Translations under genes and position numbers: made by a program
The notes under the pieces: generated by a model
Database searches by the model: none
What the model was told of the DNA's origin: nothing
The model's input: only the letters and a program-made list of their open reading frames with translations
Virus record (IMG/VR): IMGVR_UViG_3300043445_000007
Span: 1-23,296 of that record
Length of the DNA: 23,296 nucleotides
From: a virus
Reading direction: 5' to 3' (one strand)
Shown here: positions 7,919 through 22,294 of the stretch, piece by piece
How the letters are laid out: each line of letters opens with the position of its first letter
How positions within the stretch are numbered: the stretch's first letter is position 1

Positions 7919-8362
7919 TTACGAGGTTACCCGCTTTATCTTTTCGATCGTGCGTGCGGTGCCCAACCCAAGGATGCCTGTCAGGATGACCCACAGCGCG
8001 TCCGTGTCCAGGATCGGTGGCGGGTTGAGCCCGCCGGGTATCCAGCCTACCGCCTGCAGAAGTGCCCAAGCCCAAACCAGGAATGGGTACAGCACAAACT
8101 GGTAAGCCATGGCGGCTACACCGACCCAACCTACCGCCGGACGCCATCCGCTGACGAAGACGCTGGGATGCGCACTCTCGACGGCGTTCACCGCTGTCTG
8201 GCTGATTGCGAGGTCGGCCTCCACCCGCATCTCCTCCAGACCGAGCCGGCGCAGCTCGATTTCAGCGTCGAGTTTTTCCTTGTCTGTCGTTACAAGATCG
8301 TCGATCAAGCCACTGACAGTCTCGGCGAGCCCGCCGATGATTGGTGCAAAAACAGGGTTCAT
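7919..8362 (-). CDS. Three-transmembrane holin (GTA-type)
   Basis: A 147-residue protein. The ATG at 8362 overlaps the endolysin stop as ATGA, so I chose it over an in-frame ATG 30 bases further upstream that lies inside the endolysin gene. The N-terminal half is an amphipathic, charged helix (about residues 25-55, rich in Glu, Lys and Arg). The motif SGWRPAVGWVGVAAMAYQFV opens the first membrane segment (about 70-95). A second segment follows around 95-105 (LVWAWALLQAV) and a third near 123-137 (WVILTGILGLG). The protein ends in a basic tail (IEKIKRV). This matches the family of three-segment holins named for gene-transfer-agent release. Role: forms inner-membrane lesions at lysis and releases or activates the endolysin. 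It is the second membrane protein of the cassette. Confidence 0.88.
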   Translation of the reverse strand: MNPVFAPIIGGLAETVSGLIDDLVTTDKEKLDAEIELRRLGLEEMRVEADLAISQTAVNAVESAHPSVFVSGWRPAVGWVGVAAMAYQFVLYPFLVWAWALLQAVGWIPGGLNPPPILDTDALWVILTGILGLGTARTIEKIKRVTS

Positions 8363-8877
8363 GTGGCCTCGCGCAATGTGCGGTTGACCCAACCGAGCAG
8401 AAATTTGCCCTGGGTGCGGTCCTTGTTGACGATGGCGGCGTACCGGGAGAGGCGCGCGAGTGCGTACTTGGCCAGGAACAGCTCTGGGTTCATGGCGTTG
8501 ATGGCGGCCACGGTCTTGGGGCCGACAGTACCGTCTGGCGTGACGCCAACCACCAGCTGAGCCAGTTTGATCGCCACAGCCGGGCGCTTGTAGGCGCTGC
8601 TGTTGGTAGCAAAGCTGTAGATGGTGAAGGCCACGTCCTGGCTGCTTATGTCATCGCCGGCAATGGGTGTCCACCAGCCTGTGCGGTAGAAGGCACGCAC
8701 CAGCTCAGCCGGAGGTGTGTCCCCGCGGTCGATGTAGGGCCACCCAGGCCATTGCGGGTTTTTGTTGCGGGCGATCCCGGCGTAGGTCACCCCGCCAGTG
8801 TCTCCAGCCACGTTGTGCAGCTTGTACCCGCCCTCTGCGAGCAGGGCGCGCTCGAACGCTTTTGCGAAATCAGCCAC
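8359..8877 (-). CDS. Endolysin, GH108 muramidase with peptidoglycan-binding domain
   Basis: A 172-residue lysozyme-like enzyme that cuts the glycan backbone of peptidoglycan. The start is GTG at 8877. AAAGGAGG lies 6 bases upstream, and the gene overlaps the preceding stop by 8 bases. The longer frame from 9015 has no such support. The catalytic domain shows E9-x5-E15-G-G-Y18, the signature of glycosyl hydrolase family 108 with E15 as the expected acid. DTGGVTYAGI follows at residues 26-35, and a YSFATNSS segment near 87-94 corresponds to the usual 'YDFAVNSG' block. Residues 105-135 contain GVTPDGTVGPKT, typical of the C-terminal predicted peptidoglycan-binding domain. No signal peptide or signal-anchor is seen, so export depends on a holin. 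Length is normal for the family. Confidence 0.95.
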   Translation of the reverse strand: MADFAKAFERALLAEGGYKLHNVAGDTGGVTYAGIARNKNPQWPGWPYIDRGDTPPAELVRAFYRTGWWTPIAGDDISSQDVAFTIYSFATNSSAYKRPAVAIKLAQLVVGVTPDGTVGPKTVAAINAMNPELFLAKYALARLSRYAAIVNKDRTQGKFLLGWVNRTLREAT

Positions 8878-9211
8878 GGTGTGCCTCCTTTCGCCGCTCA
8901 ACGGCTTCCTGGCGGGTATCGGCTCCGCCCTGGCGCCGGTCGTACCACCCAGAACGGGCGTCGTCCATGTCGCGCAGCTTCTGGGCGTGTTCGCGCTCTG
9001 CCCGGGCGTCCTCACGGTGTTTGTAGAACCAGTTGATGCCCTGGCCCACGATGAGGCCGATCACCGCCACCGCGAGGCCGCCAAAGGCCGCCAGCTCATT
9101 GGCTGTGAGCCCCCCGAACACGGCCACTGGTACGGCGGAGTATCCGGTCTTCGTGATGGCTGCCCCAATTGATGCACCGTCTTGTCCTGTCACTTGCATC
9201 TCGATACCCAT
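8870..9211 (-). CDS. Small membrane protein, probable class II/III holin
   Basis: A 113-residue protein directly upstream of the endolysin, with 8 bases of overlap. The ATG at 9211 has GGAG 7 bases before it. A second in-frame ATG lies four codons on (M-G-I-E-M). Residues 39-58 (ELAAFGGLAVAVIGLIVGQG) form one clear membrane segment. A weaker hydrophobic stretch lies at 25-35. The C-terminal half is highly charged (YKHREDARAEREHAQKL and many Arg), as in HP1-like phage holins where NWFYKHRED-type ends are common. Position and topology support a holin. An antiholin partner of the three-segment holin is the main alternative. The charged tail could also be mistaken for an i-spanin, but it lacks the long periplasmic coiled coil. 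Confidence 0.8.
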   Translation of the reverse strand: MGIEMQVTGQDGASIGAAITKTGYSAVPVAVFGGLTANELAAFGGLAVAVIGLIVGQGINWFYKHREDARAEREHAQKLRDMDDARSGWYDRRQGGADTRQEAVERRKEAHRG

Positions 9212-16611: not shown

Positions 16612-17724
16612 TCACTGCGCCACGTAGACGCTGATCACGCCGAAGTCTTCGACCGAGTCGTTCTCGTACATATTTGCGAACTTGGGCTTGAGGAAGCCGA
16701 GCACCTTGCCAACAGAGATACCCTGCTGGTTGTCGTAGTCGAAGCCCTTCTCGTTCCACTCGGGGGTGCCGATGTCCGCCATGCCGAGTGCCTGGGCACC
16801 GCAGAACAGCATCTGGCAGCCGTCCACGTCGCCAGCGGCACCCCACTTGGAGCCGGAAGCGGCGCCGGACGTGTTGTAGACGTGGCGGAACTCGTGCAGG
16901 TAGATGCCGTCGATCTTCACGCTGGAGCCGGTGAACAGGGGGTTCGAGCCGCTGCGGTCTTGCGCATGGCGCAAGTTCTGCAGGTAGGTGGGGTCCAGCT
17001 TCAGCTTGGCCATCGCGGTGGGGCTCAGGAACGCGTGAAACACTTCCTCGCCACCGCTCTCGCCGACGCCGCGCATGTAACGCTCTTTGGCATAGGCCTT
17101 CAGCTGCACGAACAGCTCCCACATTGGGGTGTCGGCCGCGGTCACTGCGCTGGTTGCGCCACCAGACACGATGGACTTGGCGGTACCGTTCCAGCGGATG
17201 CGGCGACCGGCAGTGGGGGCGCTCACGTCGGCGGCGAACTCCAGGGCGGTCAGGTCAGAACCGACGCGGTTGGCGCCGTTGTTCTTCTTGCTGTAGGGCA
17301 CGCCGGACAGTGTCAGGAACGCCATCTGGTCGATGCGGTCAGCCAGCCAGTAAGACAGGCGGTCGCGGCTGTTACCGCGGAACTCCACAATCGACTTCTG
17401 GTCGGCCATGCGGCCTTCGTGGCGGTTGGCATGGCGCAGCATGTCAATGCGGATCACCTGGTCGTAGGTGCGCATGGCTTCTTCGTTGCCTTCCAGCGTG
17501 CGGTCGCCGGCAACGCCGTCGCCCTGCAGGTCGGCCAGCAATGTGATCACAGCGCGGGCGCCCTTCTCGGATTTTTTCAGCTCAGTGATGTGCTGGACCA
17601 TCGAGTTGGTGCCGTTGCCCAGGAACTTGTTGAGGAAAGATTGGTTGCGAGCGTGTTTCCACAGGTCCATGGACCAGGCGGTCTTTTGCTCAGAGGTCAA
17701 CAGACCGAAGTTGGTGAGTGCCAT
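16612..17724 (-). CDS. Major capsid protein, N4 gp56 family
   Basis: A 370-residue protein, ATG at 17724, with AAGGAG 6 bases upstream. It forms the icosahedral shell and is expected to have the HK97 fold. Family signs are the N-terminal TAWSMDLWKHARNQS (residues 15-29), GDGVAGDRTLEGNEEAM at 68-84 and IRIDMLRHANRHEGRMADQ at 91-109. Next come a SRDRLSYWLADRIDQMAFL helix around 118-137 and a C-terminal WNEKGFDYDNQQGISVGKVLG stretch (quoted in part). These correspond to the N4 gp56/DUF4043 major capsid family. No signal or delta domain is visible, in keeping with a separate scaffold gene. It follows a terminator-bearing gap and precedes the decoration gene, with a hairpin between them. Confidence 0.93.
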   Translation of the reverse strand: MALTNFGLLTSEQKTAWSMDLWKHARNQSFLNKFLGNGTNSMVQHITELKKSEKGARAVITLLADLQGDGVAGDRTLEGNEEAMRTYDQVIRIDMLRHANRHEGRMADQKSIVEFRGNSRDRLSYWLADRIDQMAFLTLSGVPYSKKNNGANRVGSDLTALEFAADVSAPTAGRRIRWNGTAKSIVSGGATSAVTAADTPMWELFVQLKAYAKERYMRGVGESGGEEVFHAFLSPTAMAKLKLDPTYLQNLRHAQDRSGSNPLFTGSSVKIDGIYLHEFRHVYNTSGAASGSKWGAAGDVDGCQMLFCGAQALGMADIGTPEWNEKGFDYDNQQGISVGKVLGFLKPKFANMYENDSVEDFGVISVYVAQ

Positions 17725-17852: not shown

Positions 17853-17889
17853 AAAAAAGAGCCTCGATCGTCTAAAGACAATCGAGGCT
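17853..17889 (-). terminator. Rho-independent terminator
   Basis: On the minus strand a 9-base-pair perfect stem (AGCCTCGAT with ATCGAGGCT), extended inside by a short GTC/GAC pairing, is followed after one base (C) by TTTTTT. It lies 47 bases after the stop of the RyR-domain gene. The plus strand has no U-tract after the hairpin, so it acts on the minus-strand operon only. Confidence 0.88.
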
Positions 17890-17936: not shown

Positions 17937-18296
17937 TCAGCGAGCCATCTCGCGGGCGATGGCGTGCACCACGCCGCGGAAGATAAAGTCCTTGGCCTTC
18001 TGCTCGGCCGGCAGGTCGGCGTACGGGACGATACAGGGGTGCTCTTTCTTCTCGGGGTCCTTGATCGGGCCGTAGGTCCAGCCGGTGTCGAGCTTTTCGC
18101 GCATCCAGGCGTCGTGGCTGGCGCTGACGCCCAGGTTCGGGTTGGCCAGGTGCAGCTCAGCGCCCTTGATGGCTGAGTCCTTCTGCCATTGCGGGGCATC
18201 TTCCCAGTCGACCTGGCTTTTGTCACCCAGGGCTTCGCAGTAGGCTTTGTTCACCTCATGGGCGACGCGGGCGATGGAGTGGGCGAGGGATTTCAT
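17937..18296 (-). CDS. RyR-domain protein
   Basis: A 119-residue protein, ATG at 18296, overlapping the upstream stop (ATGA) with GAGG 9 bases before it. An in-frame ATG 15 bases upstream lies inside the neighbour and is less likely. The segment from residue 31 to 105 matches the RyR domain first named in ryanodine receptors: WEDAP then QKDSAIKGAELHLANP, ASHDAWMREK, a GWTYGPIKDPEKKEHPC core at 72-88, VPYADLP, and a C-terminal helix AKDFIFRGVVHAI. In bacteria and phages this domain occurs as a stand-alone protein. Comparative genomics has linked RyR domains to nucleotide-derived signals in conflict systems, but the role of phage copies is not established. Placement just before the terminators, after Gp49, suggests an accessory rather than a structural gene. 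Confidence 0.88.
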   Translation of the reverse strand: MKSLAHSIARVAHEVNKAYCEALGDKSQVDWEDAPQWQKDSAIKGAELHLANPNLGVSASHDAWMREKLDTGWTYGPIKDPEKKEHPCIVPYADLPAEQKAKDFIFRGVVHAIAREMAR

Positions 18297-18769
18297 TGGC
18301 ATGCCTCGCAAGTCCCTTCGCCCGACAGGTCGCAGGCTTTGGTGCTGTCGAGCCAGTCCTGGTCATCGAGCTCTGCGTCCACCGCAGCCATCACGGACAG
18401 CTTGCTGCGCAACTCGTAGCCCATGAGCGGCCACACCTTGTTGATGGCATTGGCACGGGCGATCTTGCGGCCCACTTCGGCGTCGAAGTTTTCAGGGCTG
18501 GCGCAGGCTGACTCGCCGGTGACCGTGAAGCCATTGCGCAGGACCAGAACACAGAAGGTCAGCAGGCTGAGACTGCTTTCGTACACGGCTGAGGGGCGGT
18601 TTTTCGATACTTCCTCACCCATCACGCCGTTCTCAGCCGTGAAGTAGTAACAGCTCTCGATGTTCTCCTCAATGTCAGCGGGCGTGACGCGGGGGGCGGT
18701 CAGGCCTTTGGCCTGGATCAGGCGTTCGATGCCGGCGTCGGAGGTGTCGGGGGATGCAATGTGGTTCAT
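18293..18769 (-). CDS. N4 Gp49 / Sf6 Gp66 family protein
   Basis: A 158-residue protein, ATG at 18769, with AAGGA 6 bases upstream and 9 bases after the scaffold stop. Family blocks are VTPADIEENIESCYYF (residues 28-43), then LSLLTFCVLVLRNGFTVTGE near 67-86, SACASPENFDAEVGRKIAR (87-105), and VWPLMGYELRSKL at 112-124. This is the phage protein family named for N4 Gp49 and Sf6 gene 66. Its biochemical role is unknown. The last 15 residues carry three Cys (CDLSGEGTCEAC), a possible extra metal site. Members often lie outside the structural genes, so its presence between scaffold and capsid is of note. Confidence 0.92.
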   Translation of the reverse strand: MNHIASPDTSDAGIERLIQAKGLTAPRVTPADIEENIESCYYFTAENGVMGEEVSKNRPSAVYESSLSLLTFCVLVLRNGFTVTGESACASPENFDAEVGRKIARANAINKVWPLMGYELRSKLSVMAAVDAELDDQDWLDSTKACDLSGEGTCEACQ

Positions 18770-18778
18770 GGTGTGTCC

Positions 18779-19789
18779 TTAGATGGTGTCACCCCGCATC
18801 TGGGCCAGCTGCTCGTCGGTGAGCTTGGCGAAGTCCGCCTGGGACATCTTTTTCAGGTCTGCAGCGGTCAGCGCACCACCGGCCTTGTCGTTGTCCATGC
18901 CCACGCGGGCGGTGCTGGGGGGCGTCCGCTTTGCGGCGTCGAGGGCGGTCTTCACGGCACCTTGTTTGCGCTCGGTGGCCTTCTCTTTGGCCACGTCTTT
19001 CTCACTGACGCGGGGCGTGGTGTCGAGCACCTTCTGCTGGGCCTTTGTGGACGCGCCGAGCAGCTTCTCGACGGCCTTCTGCATGGCGGCGGTGGGGGTC
19101 AAGCCGCGGCGGGCCTCGTACGACGCCTTCAGGTCGACCACGTCCTGCATCAGGTCGGCGTCGTAGTCGTCGTGGTCTGCGTTCAGCATCGGGTACTCAG
19201 CCTCGATGCGCTCCAGCGCGATGTTGTACCGTGCGCGCTCCGCAGCGCGAGACTCGGCCGCAGCAATCTTCATGTCGCTCTTGGCCTCAGCCATCTGGCG
19301 CTCCAGACCGCGGATTTTCGCCATGGCGGCGGTGGCTTTCTCGACCTCGCCGTCAGCCAGGAGGGTGGCGTACTCCTTCTCCAGCTTGAGGATGTCGTTC
19401 TCCGCAGTGGTGATGTCTTCGTTCAGCTGGGCCACCTGGGTGCCCTGCTGGTACTGGGCCAGCTTCTGTTCGAGCTCGCTGCGCTTGGCGCGCTCCTTCT
19501 CCAGCATCTCCTTGTGGCGGGAGAGTGGAATGCGGGCCTCGCGTTTCTTCGCGTCGGCTTTCTCTTCCTTGTCGTCCTTGTCCGCTTCAGGGTCTGCGTC
19601 GGTGTCTGCGTCGGGGTTTTCCGGGTCAACGTCTGGGCCAGGGTCAGCCGCTGCTGCGGGCTGCTCGTCGTCATCGGTGGGGGTGAAATCGTCGCCGCGA
19701 TCCACGGTACCCGTGCCACCGGCGTCTGCGCCGTCGCCGCCCATGGGGGCCATGTACCGGGAGAGGAGTTGCTTCAGGAGGGGGTTCAT
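18779..19789 (-). CDS. Scaffolding protein
   Basis: A 336-residue protein, ATG at 19789, overlapping the portal stop (ATGA), with AAAGG upstream. Residues 18-80 are very acidic and low in complexity (many Asp, Pro and Ala, for example DADTDADPEADKDDKEE). Residues 85-200 form a charged coiled coil (HKEMLEKERAKRSELEQKL and similar). The C-terminal 60 residues are basic and helical, ending with a short DLKKMSQADFAKL type helix. This composition, and a place between portal and major capsid genes, are typical of scaffolds that guide procapsid assembly and then leave the shell. No protease domain is seen. Family membership is by architecture only. Confidence 0.87.
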   Translation of the reverse strand: MNPLLKQLLSRYMAPMGGDGADAGGTGTVDRGDDFTPTDDDEQPAAAADPGPDVDPENPDADTDADPEADKDDKEEKADAKKREARIPLSRHKEMLEKERAKRSELEQKLAQYQQGTQVAQLNEDITTAENDILKLEKEYATLLADGEVEKATAAMAKIRGLERQMAEAKSDMKIAAAESRAAERARYNIALERIEAEYPMLNADHDDYDADLMQDVVDLKASYEARRGLTPTAAMQKAVEKLLGASTKAQQKVLDTTPRVSEKDVAKEKATERKQGAVKTALDAAKRTPPSTARVGMDNDKAGGALTAADLKKMSQADFAKLTDEQLAQMRGDTI

Positions 19790-21939
19790 GCTTTGCCTTT
19801 CTGCGGTTGTGGTTTCTGTGCAGCCGCCGCTATCTGAGCACTGCGCTCCGCGCGTCGGTCTGCCTGTTCCACAGCCATCTGTTGGGCCTGGAGGCGCAGC
19901 TGGTTGTCCTGTTGTTCGCGCTTGAGCCCGAACTCCATGAACTTGAGCTGCGTATCCCGGTCGAGCTGGCGCTCTTTGATGGATGCTTCATGCTCGGCCT
20001 GGGCGGCTTTTGTCTCCGCTTCGGCCATCTTTGCCTGCCCCGAGCCATCGTCCGGCTCGCCTTGGGCAGCAATCTGGGTGTTGACCACGGTCTCCTGGGT
20101 CTTTGCCTGCTTGAGGCCGGCGTCGGCGTGCTTCGCAGCGGCTTCGCCTTCCAGTTTCGAGGTCTCCGCCTCCTGGGCGCGACGCTGCAGCTCGGCGGCA
20201 GCCTGGGCCTCGGGGCTGGACTTGTCGCCCTCCATCTGGCGTATGACTTCCTTCTTGTTCATCAGGCGGCTAGAGTCGATCAGCACGCTGTCTGGAATCG
20301 CTACGCCCATCTCGCGCAGGGCCACGGCCTGCTCAAACTGGCTGTCTTCCAGGGTCTCGCGCACGGGGACGGAGCTCACCACGACGTCATACTCGCCCAG
20401 GGTCAGGTCGTTGACGATCTCGCCCTCGGCGGTGGCCTGGTTCACGGCAAAGCTCTCGGTATCGCCCGTGGCCTGGTTGTGGGTGATCGTGAGCAGGCGC
20501 TCCTCTGTGTAGAACGTCTGCACGAGGTCCAGCACGTTGCGGGCCAGGATGTGATCGGTGCGTGTCAGGCTGTCCAGGGGCTTGGCCAGGTTCGTGCTGC
20601 CGGCCTGGCGCTTGGCCTGGATGGCCTTGGCGGCCACGTCCTCGCGGTCAAAGCCCTGCATGGAGTCGCTGACCCCGGAGATCGTCTTGATGTGCTCCTC
20701 GGCCTTGTAGCTGAGGCGGTCCAGGCCGGACGGCACGGCGTTGGGCTGGATTTTCTGGAGGTCTTTGTCGGGGTCGCCGTTGACCTCGACGACGAGGCCG
20801 GTCTGGGCGCCCTTCTCTTCCAGCTCTTCGACGGTCATGTTCGTGAGAGCCCCAGCCCGCACCTTCCAGCCGCTGTTCGCTGTCGTGTTTATGGTGTGGA
20901 GCTCCTGGCTGGAGACCTTATTCAGCATCTCCTGGGGGCCCAGCAGGTTCTCAACCAGGCCCACGGTCGTGCCGCGGCGGAAGTACGGGAAGTACGGCAC
21001 CACGGAGAAGTGCTTGTACGGGCTCCACTCGTCGTGCAGGACCACGTTGTCGGCGATGACGGTCCACCGGATGCGGCTGACCAGCTTGGTGATCACCTGA
21101 AAGCCGAACTTCTCGGTCATCATGGCGACCCGGTTACGGTCCCACTCCGCGGGTACCGGGCGCATGTCACCGTCGGGGCTCACGAAGAACTTCTGGCGGT
21201 CGAGCATGCGGTACTGACGGTCGATCAGGCGGATGTTGCGCAGGACGTTGGTCTGGTCGTGGTCGCCGTTGTAGACCGGGTTGAATCGGTCACCGAAGCG
21301 GTCACGGTACGCCTGGATCGAGTCGTGGCCGTATGGGAAATAGCTCTGGTCGCGGTTGCGGAGATAGTCGGCATCCGCTTTGTTGTAGAGGACGGCGATG
21401 TCGTCAGCCGTGACCCACTTCGTCGTGAACACTTCGTTCCAGGTGTCAGGGTCGTAGTTTTCAGCGTCGGGGTCTGGGATGACGTTCTTCGGGTTCAGGG
21501 TCTCGATGCGGACCTCGCCCTGCATGCTGTCGCCGTAGTCGATGCGGACATCCAGGTAGCCGCGGCTGGTGATGACGCCATCGGCGAACATATCGCTGCG
21601 AAGCCAGTCGAGCTTGTTGTTGTCGCTGATCTGTTTGAAGACTTTGGACAGCACGTCGGCCGTCTCAGCTGGTGCACCGGAACGCGGGCGAAAGCCAATT
21701 TCGGCCCGATTGAAAATCTGCTCGCCCATCACGTTGCTGATGGTGGAGATGATCTTGTTGATCGTCAGTGCGGGTCTGCGCACCTCCGCGAGCCTGGCCT
21801 TATCGGCCGCATCCCACTGGTCACCCCGGAAAAAGGCGTCGCATTTCTCGGCCTTCTGGACGTAGGTGGCGTGTCCGTTGTCGCGTACCCAACAATAGCG
21901 AGTCCACTGCTTCGTAGCGAGTTCGGTGTTTATGGGCAT
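19786..21939 (-). CDS. Portal protein, P22-like
   Basis: A 717-residue protein forming the dodecameric ring through which DNA enters and leaves the head. The ATG at 21939 lies 4 bases after the preceding stop and has no clear ribosome site, so translation may be coupled. N-terminal marks are a CDAFFRGDQWD motif (33-43), RPALTINKI (55-63), then SNVMGEQIFNR (68-78), typical of the P22 portal family. The centre includes PYFPYFRRGTTVGLVENLLGPQEMLNK, here given as PYFPYFRRG and LLGPQEMLNKVSSQ, and a SGVSDSMQGFDRED segment. Residues 560-717 are a long Gln/Ala/Glu-rich helical tail (AAELQRRAQEAETSK and repeats), comparable to the P22 barrel extension. The stop overlaps the scaffold start. Confidence 0.94.
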   Translation of the reverse strand: MPINTELATKQWTRYCWVRDNGHATYVQKAEKCDAFFRGDQWDAADKARLAEVRRPALTINKIISTISNVMGEQIFNRAEIGFRPRSGAPAETADVLSKVFKQISDNNKLDWLRSDMFADGVITSRGYLDVRIDYGDSMQGEVRIETLNPKNVIPDPDAENYDPDTWNEVFTTKWVTADDIAVLYNKADADYLRNRDQSYFPYGHDSIQAYRDRFGDRFNPVYNGDHDQTNVLRNIRLIDRQYRMLDRQKFFVSPDGDMRPVPAEWDRNRVAMMTEKFGFQVITKLVSRIRWTVIADNVVLHDEWSPYKHFSVVPYFPYFRRGTTVGLVENLLGPQEMLNKVSSQELHTINTTANSGWKVRAGALTNMTVEELEEKGAQTGLVVEVNGDPDKDLQKIQPNAVPSGLDRLSYKAEEHIKTISGVSDSMQGFDREDVAAKAIQAKRQAGSTNLAKPLDSLTRTDHILARNVLDLVQTFYTEERLLTITHNQATGDTESFAVNQATAEGEIVNDLTLGEYDVVVSSVPVRETLEDSQFEQAVALREMGVAIPDSVLIDSSRLMNKKEVIRQMEGDKSSPEAQAAAELQRRAQEAETSKLEGEAAAKHADAGLKQAKTQETVVNTQIAAQGEPDDGSGQAKMAEAETKAAQAEHEASIKERQLDRDTQLKFMEFGLKREQQDNQLRLQAQQMAVEQADRRAERSAQIAAAAQKPQPQKGKA

Positions 21940-21943
21940 GGTG

Positions 21944-22294
21944 TTACGGGAAAGTTTTGAGCTTGTAGAGCGTGCGCAATGTCAGCTCCTCGATCTCGGC
22001 CAGGATCGTTTCTTTGGTCTTGTTGGAGCCGTCCTCAGCCAGCTCCACCCGGACCAACTCCAGGTAGTCCTGGAGCACGCTGACCGCTTCGCCGCGTGGG
22101 GGTACGAGGCTGGGGTAGGAGACGGCACCGGCCTCGGCCATGTGAATCTCGGCGTAGCGGTCGACGAGGTCGACCAACGCTTCGTAGAAGTCGGCCAGCG
22201 CGACGTGGCGGGCGTACGAGTTGGCGGTGAGGTGGAGGATGTGCGCGGCGGTGCGCACGGCGAGGCTCTGGGCGACGAACTTGGGGCAGCTCAT
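21944..22294 (-). CDS. Small ferritin/Dps-like helical protein
   Basis: A 116-residue protein, ATG at 22294, 28 bases after the terminase stop, with a weak GAGGG upstream. Residues 12-50 read as two helices with H18, H21 and H30, then E38, D42, D45 and E49 (AAHILHLTANSYARH, then FYEALVDLVDRYAE). This spacing recalls the first helix pair of Dps-like ferritins. The C-terminal helix (ILAEIEELTLRTLYKL) completes a small bundle. I believe it corresponds to a phage DUF of ferritin-like fold (possibly DUF5856), but cannot confirm the number. Its place between terminase and portal is where a small terminase-linked or portal-linked factor might be expected. Metal binding is speculation. Confidence 0.72.
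   Translation of the reverse strand: MSCPKFVAQSLAVRTAAHILHLTANSYARHVALADFYEALVDLVDRYAEIHMAEAGAVSYPSLVPPRGEAVSVLQDYLELVRVELAEDGSNKTKETILAEIEELTLRTLYKLKTFP

What the first reader, a model, noticed from the sequence alone, without database searches (positions are those of the whole stretch)
17937..18296. RyR-domain protein encoded in the head operon
A stand-alone RyR domain with an intact GW-x-YGP-x-KD-x4-EHPC core sits between scaffold and capsid genes. RyR domains have been linked by comparative genomics to nucleotide-signal conflict systems, so a phage copy expressed with late genes could bind a host defence signal, or it could have a virion role.
Basis: partly seen in the sequence, partly recalled or inferred. 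Interest (0 to 1): 0.6.

Follow-up and report, generated by a model that had tools for sequence, protein, structure and literature searches.

The report
Phage immune-signal sponge pair near capsid

Summary
In detail: window 18296-17937 (-) encodes a 119-aa stand-alone RyR-domain protein (Pfam 46.9 bits, cut-off 27.4). A May 2026 preprint (PMC13232231) shows that phage RyR proteins ("RyDEP") defeat Thoeris defence by cleaving or sequestering 2'/3'cADPR. The window protein keeps every published ligand and catalytic residue that I could align with confidence (H61, W64, H86, D103). In a tree it lies with the sponge-type homologs, far from the one proven glycosidase. Most likely it is a cADPR sponge.

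The larger result is the gene beside it. The overlapping upstream gene (18769-18293) is a PF13876 protein, the family of the anti-CBASS sponge Acb4; AlphaFold and Foldseek put it on the Acb4 crystal structure. RyDEP and Acb4 are recurrently adjacent, and in several phages fused in frame. Tad2 and Acb2/Tad1 genes join the same cassettes, and one phage fuses RyR to an Acb2/Tad1 domain. Sponge genes concentrate beside RyR (12 of 15 within 1.5 kb; p = 1e-5). Cultured relatives with 46-63% identical capsids have essentially nothing between scaffold and capsid genes, so these are accessory counter-defence genes, not head parts.

The RyR function itself is published. I found no paper on the cassettes or fusions. 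Nothing was tested at the bench.

The parts
17937..18296 (-). RyDEP-family RyR-domain protein, 119 aa; ligand/catalytic positions H61, W64, H86, D103 (= RyDEP H75, W78, H100, D117)
   Evidence: Pfam PF02026 46.9 bits; AF2 pLDDT 95.8; residue mapping
18293..18769 (-). Acb4-family (PF13876, gp49_66) protein, 158 aa, predicted anti-CBASS cyclic-dinucleotide sponge
   Evidence: Pfam 110.2 bits; profile hit to PDB 9E4W Acb4 E=3e-7; Foldseek top 13 hits all Acb4 9E4W
18293..18296 (-). ATGA overlap of Acb4 stop and RyR start (translational coupling inferred)
   Evidence: sequence
18296..18340 (-). Cys-rich C-terminal tail of the Acb4 protein (KACDLSGEGTCEACQ), also found at the end of some RyR proteins
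17860..17889 (-). terminator-like hairpin plus U-run between the sponge cassette and the capsid gene
   Evidence: a different-sequence hairpin at the same place in 8 of 9 relatives examined
18779..19789 (-). putative scaffold gene (position and acidic composition only; no family hit)
16612..17724 (-). major capsid protein (N4-gp56 / phrog_334)
19786..21939 (-). portal protein (P22-like PF16510)

Best explanation
The protein is a RyDEP-family viral immune-evasion protein, most likely a non-hydrolysing sponge. It dimerises into the RyR Repeat12-like helical fold, binds the TIR-made signal 2'/3'cADPR in the H61/W64/H86/D103 pocket, and so keeps the Thoeris effector from being activated. It is made from the same message as an overlapping Acb4-family sponge for CBASS cyclic dinucleotides. 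The pair sits in an accessory slot next to the capsid gene, perhaps because capsid protein is what some Thoeris systems sense. Shown here: family, fold, conserved residues, gene overlap, recurrent linkage and fusion to sponge families, absence from cultured relatives. Shown by others on homologs: cADPR binding, anti-Thoeris activity, Acb4 ligand binding, capsid sensing by Thoeris. Inferred: that this protein binds cADPR, sponge rather than enzyme, dimerisation, co-translation, the timing argument.
For: Pfam RyR; PDB 35TM is identical to DyoEdafos gp78 = RyDEP and is matched by the window protein. H75, W78, H100, D117 of RyDEP correspond to H61, W64, H86, D103, invariant in 51 aligned relatives and almost so in a wider 52-row set. 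The tree separates DyoEdafos/Aegeus (100/100) from a set holding the window protein and the Ruegeria and Pectobacterium phage proteins. AF2 pLDDT 95.8; best fold match the RyR R12 chimera 6UHI, E = 3e-5. Published biochemistry on homologs. Neighbour is Acb4 family. Pfam-confirmed Acb4-RyR fusions L033, L038, L085, L104, L007, L236, L249 and RyR-Acb2/Tad1 fusion L112. Tad2 beside RyR/Acb4 in L009, L019, L195 and Acb2/Tad1 beside RyR in L051, L065, L193. Positional enrichment p = 1e-5.
Against: No biochemistry on this protein. Two of eight phage homologs in the preprint did not bind 2'/3'cADPR. The catalytic dyad is intact, so hydrolysis is not excluded. The host is unknown, so it is not known whether Thoeris or CBASS is ever met. 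The head-operon position implies later expression than the early-to-mid activity reported for DyoEdafos. Window Acb4 lacks several SPO1 contact residues (E49 to T82, Y57 to A90, N63 to D96). The key source is a preprint.
Confidence: 0.72

Rival explanations
1. It is an active RyDEP glycosidase that cleaves 2'/3'cADPR to linear ADPR rather than a sponge.
For: The H75/D117 catalytic dyad is conserved as H61/D103.
Against: The dyad is invariant across the whole group, including the Ruegeria and Pectobacterium phage proteins whose counterparts were reported as non-hydrolysing; only DyoEdafos of nine tested proteins was enzymatic. DyoEdafos lies on a very long separate branch. Its Q54, also needed for activity, aligns with A42 here (alignment uncertain). 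No NARP1 genes in the window.
Confidence: 0.12
2. It binds another nucleotide or NAD-derived ligand (another TIR product, or a housekeeping nucleotide) and acts on a different defence system or on host metabolism.
For: Two of eight homologs did not bind 2'/3'cADPR. Animal R12 domains bind ATP/ADP analogues (PDB entries). RyR genes also sit beside NAD genes in actinophages.
Against: All published cADPR-contact residues that align with confidence are kept; it sits in the part of the tree with the proven cADPR binders.
Confidence: 0.11
3. It is a virion or head-assembly component.
For: It lies between scaffold and capsid genes, and in the F116/8P lineage between capsid and adaptor genes with a coiled-coil-like C-terminal extension.
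Against: KPP25/R18, Acidovorax phage AP1 and Aeromonas phage phiA008, with 46-63% identical capsids, have at most a 39-aa ORF between scaffold and capsid. Gene order and content of the slot vary freely in the lineage. In Schitoviridae, Vilmaviridae and others the gene lies in replication or metabolic modules.
Confidence: 0.05

Closest known systems
RyDEP, Mycobacterium phage DyoEdafos gp78 (PDB 35TM; PMC13232231)
   Same: RyR/R12 fold family; H75, W78, H100, D117 all conserved
   Different: DyoEdafos is a glycosidase embedded in a NARP1 NAD-synthesis operon; window protein is very distant from it, lacks the Q54 equivalent, and is paired with Acb4
Sponge-type RyDEP homologs (H4 Ruegeria phage, H7 Pectobacterium phage)
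   Same: 48% and 56% identity to available Ruegeria and Pectobacterium phage proteins; same broad group of the tree; conserved pocket. Which phages supplied H4 and H7 was not checkable
   Different: those genes lie in replication modules; the window gene is in the head operon and stand-alone
Acb4 (SPO1 Acb4, PDB 9E4W; N4 gp48; PF13876), the neighbouring gene
   Same: PF13876 membership, profile hit E = 3e-7, Foldseek match; guanine-stacking F48 = F81 and adenine-pocket F62 = F95 conserved
   Different: longer N-terminus and Cys tail; several SPO1 contact residues replaced
Tad2 (PF11195) and Acb2/Tad1 (PF24729) sponges
   Same: occur in the same cassettes in relatives; one RyR-Acb2/Tad1 fusion
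   Different: separate Pfam families; absent from the window itself
Animal ryanodine receptor Repeat12 domain / B. thetaiotaomicron RyR protein 3NRT
   Same: fold and GW-YGP-HPC core
   Different: channel regulatory domain or uncharacterised bacterial protein

Membership tests
PF02026 / RyDEP family | RyR domain above Pfam gathering score | tested here: met
   46.9 vs 27.4 bits
PF02026 / RyDEP family | ligand/catalytic residues H75, W78, H100, D117 | tested here: met
   H61, W64, H86, D103
PF02026 / RyDEP family | R12-like helical fold | tested here: met
   AF2 pLDDT 95.8; Foldseek 6UHI E=3e-5, TMq 0.67
PF02026 / RyDEP family | homodimer | not testable with these tools
   monomer prediction only
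PF02026 / RyDEP family | binds 2'/3'cADPR and defeats Thoeris | not testable with these tools
   needs EMSA and plating
RyDEP glycosidase subtype | groups with DyoEdafos RyDEP and keeps Q54 | tested here: not met
   long separate branch 100/100; Q54 aligns with A42, alignment uncertain there
RyDEP glycosidase subtype | embedded in NARP1 operon | tested here: not met
   neighbours are Acb4, scaffold and capsid
Acb4 (neighbour gene) | PF13876 above gathering score | tested here: met
   110.2 vs 27 bits; family defined as PF13876 in PMC11722364
Acb4 (neighbour gene) | fold of 9E4W | tested here: met
   top 13 Foldseek hits, best E=4e-4
Acb4 (neighbour gene) | SPO1 ligand-contact residues | tested here: inconclusive
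   F48 and F62 conserved as F81 and F95; E49, Y57, N63 and T70 replaced (alignment)
Acb4 (neighbour gene) | tetramer binding 3'3'-cGAMP | not testable with these tools
   needs biochemistry

The most novel reading that the evidence does not exclude
Phages carry modular, interchangeable multi-signal sponge cassettes (RyDEP, Acb4, Tad2, Acb2/Tad1) and single-chain Acb4-RyDEP and RyDEP-Acb2/Tad1 proteins that block CBASS and Thoeris at once. In this lineage the cassette is docked beside the capsid gene so that the sponges appear with the trigger that Thoeris senses.
Probability: 0.45. Interest if true: 0.72.

Novelty: new variant of a known kind. Interest (0 to 1): 0.55.

Why it matters
Separate papers define RyDEP and Acb4 as sponges for different defence signals; no paper in the searched library mentions both. 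Their recurrent adjacency and in-frame fusion, with Tad2 and Acb2/Tad1 as alternative partners, suggests phages assemble combination blockers of nucleotide immunity. It also gives a rule for finding new ones: two uncharacterised modules travel with these cassettes. The capsid-adjacent position makes the idea that blockers are co-produced with the trigger directly testable.

Tried and rejected
Virion role: rejected because close cultured relatives lack the gene. Enzyme rather than sponge: not excluded, disfavoured by the tree. Fusion in 185 phage records (the >=80% coverage count): rejected after checking. Two of the 241-251 aa Ackermannviridae proteins carry Acb4 but no RyR, so only about 76 records at >=80% identity are credited. 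L069 (RyR-Acb2/Tad1 by my own profile) was not confirmed by Pfam, and the L227 'fusion' was only the shared Cys tail; both are left out of the list of fusions, though the script counts include L069 (and L227) as fused. Defence-family libraries (PADLOC) and NCBIfam gave nothing for RyR. Host assignment: no host found; only related loci in Pseudomonas, Variovorax and other genomes. The sigma-70 scan found no promoter for the cassette. The supplement naming H4 and H7 could not be read.

Full report
Observation. The ORF at 18296-17937 (minus strand) encodes 119 aa with the exact core GWTYGPIKDPEKKEHPC. Pfam RyR PF02026 matches at 46.9 bits against a cut-off of 27.4; tblastn finds relatives in 285 phage records. 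The start overlaps the upstream stop as ATGA and has a GAGG motif 7 nt before it. The record is a 23,296-base virus contig with no further genome.

What the family does. A May 2026 preprint (PMC13232231) names phage RyR proteins RyDEP. DyoEdafos gp78 hydrolyses 2'cADPR and 3'cADPR to ADPR with H75/D117 as catalytic dyad. Six of eight other phage homologs bind the signals without cleaving them; homologs from a Ruegeria and a Pectobacterium phage bind in the nanomolar range and restore phage plating on Thoeris strains. I fetched DyoEdafos gp78 and confirmed by counting that H75, W78, H100 and D117 fall where the preprint says; PDB 35TM is the same sequence.

The window protein as a member. H61, W64, H86 and D103 are the equivalents, invariant in 51 relatives; in a wider set of 52 rows, H61, H86 and D103 remain invariant and W64 has one exception. 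Q54 of DyoEdafos, also mutated in the preprint, aligns with A42 here, with I in the Ruegeria and A in the Pectobacterium phage protein, but the alignment is weak in that region. In the tree, DyoEdafos and Aegeus are split from all others with full support on a very long branch; the window protein lies among the others with the Ruegeria and Pectobacterium phage proteins, though not in a close clade with them. AlphaFold2 gives pLDDT 95.8 and a four-helix model whose best PDB matches are RyR R12 domains. The best reading is a cADPR sponge; hydrolysis is not excluded because the dyad is intact.

The neighbour. The gene directly upstream (18769-18293) is PF13876, 110 bits. Chang et al. (PMC11722364) define PF13876 as the Acb4 family: SPO1 Acb4 is a tetrameric 3'3'-cGAMP sponge, and eight of eight homologs bound cGAMP. 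N4 gp48 is a functional Acb4 (PMC12657230). A profile of 51 window-like sequences hits Acb4 9E4W at E = 3e-7, and the top 13 Foldseek hits of the predicted structure are all 9E4W chains. The guanine-stacking F48 and adenine-pocket F62 are kept (F81, F95); several other contacts are replaced.

Linkage and fusion. In 72 non-redundant RyR loci from the window-protein scans, 12 of 15 unfused Acb4, Tad2 or Acb2/Tad1 genes within 7 kb lie within 1.5 kb of RyR, although that zone is a quarter of the sequence (p = 1e-5). In 141 loci from all scans the figures are 25 within 1.5 kb against 3 at 1.5-5 kb (one of these scans used a RyR neighbour of Acb4 as query, so it is biased upward). These families were detected with iterated profiles of my own; Pfam confirmed the cases listed next. 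Pfam finds both domains in single reading frames in L033, L038, L085, Salmonella phage Maynard and Vibrio phage FGH, L236 and L249, and RyR plus Acb2/Tad1 in Sulfitobacter phage phiCB2047-B. About 76 phage records hold Maynard-type sequence at >=80% identity. Three-gene cassettes exist: Tad2-Acb4-RyR (L019), RyR-Tad2-Acb4 (L009), Tad2-RyR-Acb4 (L195), Acb2/Tad1-RyR-Acb4 (L193). The reverse does not hold: 75 of the 80 nearest Acb4 loci have no RyR within 5 kb, so Acb4 is the more general family. Neither source paper mentions the other family's protein, and no paper in the library has both terms with phage.

The slot. In the window's lineage the order is terL-DUF5856-portal-scaffold-[cassette]-capsid, with the cassette content and order changing between relatives. 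The nearest cultured capsids (KPP25/R18 63%, Acidovorax AP1 50%, Aeromonas phiA008 46% identity) have nothing there or a 39-aa ORF. A terminator-like hairpin at the cassette end is present with different sequences in 8 of 9 relatives examined, which suggests that the sponge genes close one transcription unit and the capsid gene opens the next. The same 15-residue Cys tail ends Acb4 in some cassettes and RyR in others, a trace of recombination at the 3' end.

Why there. Staphylococcal and streptococcal Thoeris are activated by major capsid proteins (Roberts et al. 2025, PMC12578639). Producing the sponge from genes next to the capsid would match signal and blocker in time. This is inference; expression was not measured, and elsewhere RyR genes lie in replication modules.

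Limits. No experiment was done on this protein, the host is unknown, the key source is a preprint, and its supplement could not be consulted.

Noticed in passing
window 18296-18340 (-); L193, L116, L221, L208, L213, L227: The Cys-rich tail KACDLSGEGTCEACQ ends Acb4 in the window and in several relatives but ends RyR in others, as if the last gene of a cassette acquires a fixed 3' end.
   Followed up: partly
L011:6236-6595, L012:6292-6615, L014:6645-7004, L015:6693-7004; N-termini of L033:6320-7333 and L038:6299-7321: An uncharacterised ~100-aa module (MIKPTVGRKVWYRHD...) sits beside Acb4/RyR genes and is fused in front of Acb4-RyR in two contigs; candidate new sponge or adaptor.
   Followed up: partly
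L009, L019, L065, L195; N-termini of L004:5785-6336 and L111:2785-3333: A second short module (GYxVxYxDGxxSWSPKxxFExAY) precedes Tad2 and, weakly matched, the RyR domain of Pectobacterium phages.
   Followed up: partly
L102:2956-3634; L002:2807-5557; L100:2907-5676: In actinophages RyR genes overlap or adjoin NAD genes: PnuC transporter (Xenomorph) and NARP1 genes (DyoEdafos, Aegeus).
   Followed up: partly
window 21944-22294 (-): DUF5856 / PHROG 'starvation-inducible transcriptional regulator' gene between terminase and portal, kept in most of the lineage.
   Followed up: no
L006, L031, L048, L060, L107, L108: F116/8P-type phages carry RyR with a 150-170 aa C-terminal extension of unknown function between capsid/decoration and adaptor genes.
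   Followed up: partly
L041:7821-9359; L015:7443-9247: Large accessory ORFs in the same scaffold-capsid slot after RyR/Acb4, not identified.
   Followed up: no
window 7919-9211 (-): Lysis region: glycosyl hydrolase 108/peptidoglycan-binding endolysin with two holin-like proteins.
   Followed up: no
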